From a virus: DNA of 64,000 bases. Positions 16,180 through 16,759 of the stretch are shown piece by piece (positions within the stretch are counted from its first letter, which is position 1; each line of letters starts with the position of its first letter). The position numbers were made by a program, and so were the translations under genes. Where the stretch lies: positions 1 through 64,000 of IMG/VR virus record IMGVR_UViG_3300019458_000191. The stretch is one strand, 5' to 3'. The notes below the pieces were generated by a model. It was not told the origin of the DNA, did no database searches, and worked only from the letters and a program-made list of their open reading frames with translations.

Positions 16180-16575
16180 AAAATATACTTGTCCCCGATA
16201 ACATTTCATGATACCGGTTTCCTTGCTAAAGGGCGAACGATTTAGGAAATAAGTCTTAGCTGACTCGTATCCTTTTGTCGTCCCTCATAAGGACAAGTTC
16301 GACGGAACAAATACCGTCTGTTTTTCATTCGACTGACCGTGTGAGGCGTCACCCTCTATATCTACCCATCAGTTAGGCCGGGCCATAGTAGGCATCAGGT
16401 CGCTCTGCGTCCCGATTGGAGTTGACTTCTCCGACCATTTTTCCCCGAACGAAATTCTACAAATTATTAGTGGGAATGTATTGTAAGGTGATACATTCAA
16501 AATATGTCACACAGAATCCTGCCGGGTGCTTCCTCGCTCGTCCGAACACAGACCAACATATTCTACTTCCACCAA
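16180..16575. ncRNA. Structured, G+C-richer gene-free region; candidate large non-coding RNA
   Basis: No credible protein frame is present and the base composition is visibly richer in G+C than neighbours. A nested multi-branch fold can be drawn: ACTTGTCC (16187-16194) with GGACAAGT (16291-16298); inside it GATAC (16210-16214) with GTATC (16267-16271); inside that TTTCCT with AGGAAA (16218-16223, 16244-16249) and AGTC with GACT (16252-16255, 16262-16265). Further helices are GAATGTAT with ATACATTC (16474-16481, 16491-16498) and GGAG with CTCC near 16420-16435. Strand is not settled; the tRNAs and a strong promoter at 17235-17262 favour minus. Large phage RNAs such as GOLLD and ROOL also sit beside tRNAs, but I could not match either. 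Confidence 0.6.
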
Positions 16576-16581
16576 ATACTG

Positions 16582-16637
16582 AAAAAAATGTTTGAAACGG
16601 TATCGGCCTTATTGCCATTGTAATCCGTTTCAAACAT
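16582..16637 (-). terminator. Long hairpin with T-run, possible terminator or RNA domain
   Basis: 13-bp stem (16588-16600 with 16625-16637; arm ATGTTTGAAACGG) with a 24-nt loop, followed on the minus strand by a run of T. The loop is larger than in usual intrinsic terminators. Confidence 0.5.
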
Positions 16638-16654
16638 GTTGGGTATCCTATATT

Positions 16655-16710
16655 ATTGAGTTTTCCACGGCTTTAGCAACGCATCCGATAGAATCGGAGA
16701 ACTACTCAAT
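16655..16710. ncRNA. 56-nt structured element
   Basis: Closed by ATTGAGT/ACTCAAT (16655-16661 and 16704-16710), extended by TTTCC with GGAGA, with an inner CCGAT-AGA-ATCGG hairpin. On the plus strand it is followed by TTTTTAC. Lies between the odd tRNA and the long hairpin; probably part of the same RNA locus. Confidence 0.45.
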
Positions 16711-16759
16711 TTTTACGTTTTTGTTTTCTATTCCCATCGCCCTAACCGATGGAACAAAT

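What the first reader, a model, noticed from the sequence alone, without database searches (positions are those of the whole stretch)
16180..16757. Structured, G+C-richer non-coding RNA locus beside the tRNAs
About 0.6 kb has no protein frame, higher G+C than the surrounding genes, and many nested complementary segments (for example an 8-bp helix closing 16187-16298 with three further helices nested inside in correct order, an 8-bp hairpin at 16474-16498, a 13-bp stem at 16588-16637, and a 7-bp-closed 56-mer at 16655-16710). It lies among tRNAs, where large phage RNAs such as GOLLD or ROOL are found. I could not match a known class.
Basis: partly seen in the sequence, partly recalled or inferred. 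Interest (0 to 1): 0.8.

Follow-up and report, generated by a model that had tools for sequence, protein, structure and literature searches.

The report
Orphan structured RNA beside phage tRNA
Right behind an odd tRNA gene, an uncultured phage carries about 0.6 kb of DNA that codes for no protein and probably makes a folded RNA unlike any catalogued family, placed and sized like the large tRNA-linked RNAs of other phages; no relative was found, so its structure rests on fold prediction alone.

Summary
16180-16757 has no protein frame or codon periodicity and 43% G+C against 35%. All listed helices sit at the stated coordinates, including the longest perfect stem in the window (13 bp). Folding favours the minus strand (z -3.25, against -1.2 for the plus strand), the strand of the tRNA that ends 3 nt upstream. 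About one control segment in nine of this genome folds as well, so stability alone proves little. A strong promoter at 17262-17235 (-), of a type found at most tRNA operons in two related phages, would drive two small ORFs, a class-II tRNA(UAU) and this region, with no terminator between. Rfam gives no match, and GOLLD and ROOL models are negative in this record and 20 related records. The two relatives with the syntenic tRNA island hold ordinary tRNAs here, not this RNA. DNA, covariance-model and pattern searches found no homologue, so covariation cannot be tested. The closest parallel is the kayvirus lncRNAs: one of 570 bp lies right after a tRNA; both are transcribed abundantly and neither reaches Rfam. 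Verdict: probably a real, lineage-specific, tRNA-linked large phage RNA, but an unproven orphan and not a GOLLD or ROOL member.

The parts
17235..17262 (-). promoter TTGACA-16-TATACT followed by TTATTTACAG; tRNA-operon type
   Evidence: 11 of 12 to the sigma-70 consensus; the pattern TTGAC-N15/18-TATA[GC]TTATT lies just upstream of most tRNA operons in the relatives G030 and G026
16951..17136 (-). 61-aa ORF in the leader of the presumed transcript
   Evidence: ORF list; no Pfam match
16858..16947 (-). 29-aa hydrophobic ORF (MTVILIIPLIGLIALYFVGLATGYFDRLN)
   Evidence: read from the sequence
16760..16850 (-). divergent class-II tRNA, anticodon UAU, CCA encoded; its 3' end would set the 5' end of the RNA
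   Evidence: ARAGORN; below Rfam tRNA detection; UAU tRNAs with a long variable arm at the same place in G030 and G026
16180..16757 (-). candidate structured non-coding RNA
   Evidence: no codon periodicity, minus-strand z -3.25; G+C 0.43; no Rfam match
16731..16754 (-). 5' hairpin TTCCATCG/CGATGGGAA with loop GTTAGGG; competes with a 12-bp long-range helix 16741-16752/16366-16377
   Evidence: read from the sequence; centroid and MFE folds show the alternatives
16655..16710 (-). 7-bp-closed stem-loop (ATTGAGT/ACTCAAT) with inner hairpin TCCGAT-TCT-ATCGGA
   Evidence: sequence; the helix is in the centroid
16588..16637 (-). 13-bp stem with 24-nt loop, pair probability 0.98; may extend outward with CCAACAT/ATGTTGG (16553-16642)
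16474..16498 (-). 8-bp hairpin GAATGTAT/ATACATTC
   Evidence: pair probability 0.83
16187..16298 (-). 3' domain: 8-bp closing helix around three arms
   Evidence: z -4.05, 0 of 200 shuffles; pair probabilities 0.61-0.98
17806..17879 (-). tRNA-Gly(UCC) of the same island
17949..18022 (-). tRNA-Gly(GCC) of the same island
20899..22410 (+). DUF2828/DUF7788 Ro-like RNA-binding protein, near the tRNA island in three phages; possible partner of the RNA

Best explanation
A lineage-specific, tRNA-linked large non-coding RNA of a T4-like environmental phage, encoded on the minus strand. A tRNA-type phage promoter at 17262-17235 transcribes a short leader with two small ORFs, then a class-II tRNA(UAU), then this region. 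Host tRNA-processing nucleases release the tRNA at its encoded CCA, which leaves an RNA of about 570 nt with a 5' end near 16757. It would fold into a 5' multi-branched part and a compact 3' domain (16187-16298) and accumulate as a stable RNA during infection. My bet on its job, inferred only by analogy with GOLLD, ROOL and kayvirus lncRNAs, is an abundant scaffold or decoy RNA that acts on the translation or tRNA side of infection rather than an mRNA or an antisense regulator. Shown: sequence anatomy, strand bias of folding, promoter type, synteny of the tRNA island, absence from Rfam. Inferred: transcription, processing, stability, function.
For: Minus-strand folding exceeds the plus strand and shuffles. 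No codon periodicity and no frame. A tRNA ends 3 nt upstream on the same strand. The promoter class is shared with tRNA operons of relatives, and the scan reports no terminator-like site on the minus strand between 17235 and 16187. In kayvirus 515A1 a 570-bp lncRNA1 lies immediately after tRNA-Met, is read from the tRNA's promoter, and together with a 525-bp lncRNA2 takes about 10% of counts (PMC7698491). Those two regions show like signs: G+C 35% against 29% for the stretch (lncRNA1), transcribed strand folds better in both, lncRNA2 z -4.0 against -1.2, and neither matches Rfam.
Against: No homologue, hence no covariation. About 11% of control segments of this genome fold as stably relative to shuffles. 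The two relatives with a syntenic tRNA island lack the region. Kayvirus lncRNA1 itself folds only weakly (z -1.2), so folding energy discriminates poorly. No RNA data, no clear 3' terminator.
Confidence: 0.6

Rival explanations
1. Decaying or spacer DNA in a hypervariable tRNA island: remnants of lost tRNA or protein genes, with no selected structure.
For: In the syntenic island of G030 this position holds tRNA-Met and tRNA-Leu, and in G026 Met, a short ORF and Leu. The RNA is present only here. Helix density and MFE are not outstanding for this genome.
Against: No alignment to those tRNAs or islands beyond chance. The strand-specific folding, the 13-bp stem and the raised G+C are unexpected for decaying AT-rich phage DNA.
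Confidence: 0.25
2. An RNA partner (Y-RNA-like) of the phage's Ro-like DUF2828/DUF7788 protein, which lies near the tRNA island in three phages.
For: Ro-like gene and tRNA island are neighbours and divergently oriented here, in G030 and in G026. Cellular Ro works with a tRNA-like RNA partner (PMC7824862).
Against: No Y RNA family match. The region is much longer than Y RNAs (own knowledge), and the relatives have the protein without the RNA.
Confidence: 0.07
3. A run of tiny protein genes (20-28 aa) after the tRNA.
For: Several ATG ORFs of 20-28 aa on the minus strand, for example 16637-16563 and 16328-16242.
Against: Flat G+C over codon positions; short ORFs of this size occur on both strands.
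Confidence: 0.04
4. A split, permuted or intron-bearing tRNA.
For: Relatives have Met and Leu tRNAs at this spot.
Against: ARAGORN with introns allowed finds only the UAU tRNA at its standard threshold; relaxed thresholds give noise on both strands. No group I or II intron match even at E 10.
Confidence: 0.03

Closest known systems
Kayvirus (vB_SauM-515A1, phage K) lncRNA1 and lncRNA2 (PMC7698491, PMC9241854)
   Same: about 0.5-0.6 kb; next to tRNA genes, lncRNA1 immediately after one and from the tRNA's promoter; G+C above background (lncRNA1); transcribed strand folds better; not in Rfam
   Different: different phage family; no sequence similarity; kayvirus RNAs were seen by RNA-seq, this one was not tested
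GOLLD RNA (RF02032)
   Same: large, ornate, phage-encoded, near or downstream of a tRNA (PMC12286853)
   Different: no match to the family model here or in 20 related records; many GOLLD members exceed 800 nt with a conserved 3' region
ROOL RNA (RF03087)
   Same: about 570-580 nt, phage or prophage, often near tRNA islands
   Different: no match to the family model; no pseudoknot or covariation data here
ICP1 ~800-nt abundant ncRNA (PMC7567579)
   Same: orf-less, large phage RNA of unknown role
   Different: ICP1 has no tRNAs; length and context differ

Membership tests
GOLLD (RF02032) | match to the covariance model (416 positions, gathering score 150 bits) | tested here: not met
   no match in window at gathering score or to E 10 on 16020-17320; family search of the record and 20 relatives: none over cut-off
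GOLLD (RF02032) | location near phage tRNAs | tested here: met
   tRNA ends at 16760, same strand
ROOL (RF03087) | match to the covariance model (574 positions, gathering score 99.1 bits) | tested here: not met
   the control set has no ROOL carrier, so sensitivity was not shown there
ROOL / GOLLD | homo-oligomeric nanocage | not testable with these tools
   needs cryo-EM or mass photometry
tRNA-linked large phage ncRNA (descriptive kind: GOLLD, ROOL, kayvirus lncRNAs) | 0.5-0.9 kb orf-less stretch next to a tRNA in a phage | tested here: met
tRNA-linked large phage ncRNA (descriptive kind: GOLLD, ROOL, kayvirus lncRNAs) | abundant transcription of the tRNA strand | not testable with these tools
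   no RNA-seq; a tRNA-type promoter upstream is indirect
tRNA-linked large phage ncRNA (descriptive kind: GOLLD, ROOL, kayvirus lncRNAs) | conserved secondary structure with covariation | tested here: inconclusive
   no homologue found
Y RNA / YrlA | match to a Rfam Y RNA family | tested here: not met
   no Y RNA family among matches
tRNA / tmRNA | cloverleaf with T-loop, or tmRNA fold, inside 16180-16757 | tested here: not met

The most novel reading that the evidence does not exclude
A new class of ornate large phage RNA, unrelated in sequence to GOLLD and ROOL, made by read-through from a tRNA-type promoter and released by tRNA processing; possibly an oligomer, or a partner of the Ro-like protein encoded near the tRNA island.
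Probability: 0.25. Interest if true: 0.75.

Novelty: new variant of a known kind. Interest (0 to 1): 0.45.

Why it matters
The role of tRNA-linked large phage RNAs is an open question, and GOLLD and ROOL were recently shown to form RNA-only nanocages (PMC12286853). Independent RNAs of unrelated sequence at the same genomic place in unrelated phages would suggest a common selective reason that could be tested. Here the locus also lies near a Ro-like RNA-binding protein gene, which gives a concrete candidate partner.

Tried and rejected
Relatives found through the 336-aa protein (12388-13398) proved unhelpful: only that gene is shared. Ro-like relatives L032 and L033 have no tRNAs. Neighbouring small genes have no relatives. 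DNA pattern scans of viral contigs and genomes gave no homologue: the hits with the best further similarity that I examined lie almost all in coding DNA, with no similarity beyond short stretches. A covariance model of the 3' domain built from this one sequence gave only weak matches, which lie inside ORFs, such as 26532-26639 in this window and L112. Hidden or intron-split tRNAs were rejected. Kinship with the Met and Leu tRNAs of the syntenic islands was rejected. Reassignment of AUA by the odd UAU tRNA was rejected: AUA positions in the DNA polymerase align with Ile. My first family number for GOLLD was wrong (RF01998 is a group II intron fragment); repeated with RF02032.

Full report
What was checked. 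The window is part of an IMG/VR virus record of 89,913 bases from a T4-like phage: family-B DNA polymerase, clamp loader, helicase, rIIA/rIIB and a DUF2828/DUF7788 Ro-like protein. The region 16180-16757 has 43% G+C against 35%, no ORF above 59 aa and no difference in G+C between codon positions.

Is the folding more than chance? On the minus strand the region folds to -172.1 kcal/mol, z -3.25, with 1 of 120 dinucleotide shuffles as stable; on the plus strand -142.2, z -1.2. The 112-nt 3' domain (16187-16298) gives z -4.05 and the stem region 16553-16642 z -3.85, each with no shuffle of 200 as stable. The 13-bp stem is the longest perfect stem in the window. As a caution, 10 of 88 control segments of the same genome reach z -3.0 or lower (one overlaps this locus), and a strand difference of 30 kcal/mol or more is seen in 9 of 110 segments. 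Thermodynamics therefore supports but does not prove a structured RNA.

Strand and transcription unit. Three tRNAs lie on the minus strand; the nearest ends at 16760, 3 nt before the region. Upstream at 17262-17235 (-) is TTGACA-16-TATACT (11 of 12) followed by TTATTTACAG. The same extended form TTGAC-N-TATA[GC]TTATT precedes most tRNA operons in two related phages, so it looks like this lineage's tRNA-operon promoter. The consensus scan reports no terminator-like site on the minus strand between it and 16187. The presumed transcript is leader, 61-aa ORF, 29-aa hydrophobic ORF, tRNA(UAU), then the region.

Relatives. With the DNA polymerase as bait, 20 relatives at 47-78% identity were found. 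Two of them, G030 (214,733 bp) and G026 (102,170 bp), carry tRNAs and the syntenic island: tRNA-Gly(GCC), tRNA-Gly(UCC), a class-II tRNA(UAU), tRNA-Met, tRNA-Leu, with the Ro-like gene nearby in divergent orientation. In both, the place that follows the UAU tRNA holds tRNAs, and our region aligns to it no better than shuffles. The records of the closest polymerase relatives examined (G018, G032) show homologues only of genes from 46.7 kb rightward and do not reach this locus.

Search for homologues. None was found by blastn in phage and plasmid collections, by DNA searches in the records of relatives, by a covariance model of the 3' domain over 27 records, or by pattern scans of viral contigs and prokaryote genomes; the pattern hits checked in detail lie almost all in coding DNA and share only short stretches. 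Without homologues, covariation, the decisive test, is impossible.

Comparison with what is known. No Rfam family matches at gathering score or at E 10 (the few sub-threshold matches are chance-level hits to unrelated families); GOLLD (RF02032) and ROOL (RF03087) models are negative for this record and 20 others. In kind it resembles tRNA-linked large phage RNAs. GOLLD and ROOL lie often near tRNA islands and form nanocages, with unknown function (PMC12286853). Kayvirus 515A1 has a 570-bp lncRNA1 immediately after tRNA-Met, transcribed from the tRNA's promoter, and a 525-bp lncRNA2 before another tRNA group (PMC7698491). As a yardstick I folded those two: the transcribed strand folds better in each, lncRNA2 z -4.0 against -1.2, lncRNA1 only -1.2 against -0.3, and neither is found by Rfam. 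Absence from Rfam and a moderate z-score are thus what a transcribed RNA of this kind can show.

Conclusion. The most likely reading (0.6) is a lineage-specific tRNA-linked large RNA, new in sequence, made from the minus strand and released by tRNA processing, with an inferred scaffold or decoy role. The main rival (0.25) is unselected spacer or remnant DNA in a variable tRNA island.

Noticed in passing
16760-16850 (-); L092:4683-4775 (-); L096 about 3842-3932 (+): A class-II tRNA (long variable arm) with anticodon UAU, conserved in position in three phages; the copy here is too divergent for the Rfam tRNA model. AUA still aligns with Ile in the DNA polymerase.
   Followed up: partly
20899-22410 (+); L092:6809-8296; L096:7-1443: A DUF2828/DUF7788 Ro-like RNA-binding protein gene lies near the tRNA island, divergently oriented, in three related phages.
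   Followed up: partly
17235-17262 (-); L092, L094, L095, L096: A distinct promoter form TTGAC-N16/17-TATA[GC]TTATT stands before most tRNA operons of this phage lineage.
   Followed up: yes
14067-15219 (-): A MotA/TolQ/ExbB-type channel protein (14734-15219) followed by a 224-aa gene whose N-terminus looks TolR/ExbD-like by eye (no Pfam match), carried by the phage.
   Followed up: no
16858-16947 (-): A 29-aa hydrophobic ORF just before the tRNA contains a 10-bp inverted repeat (16863-16872/16914-16923).
   Followed up: no
L095 about 9400-9734; L096 about 3985-4055: The tRNA arrays of G030 and G026 contain further tRNA-like stretches that ARAGORN does not call.
   Followed up: no
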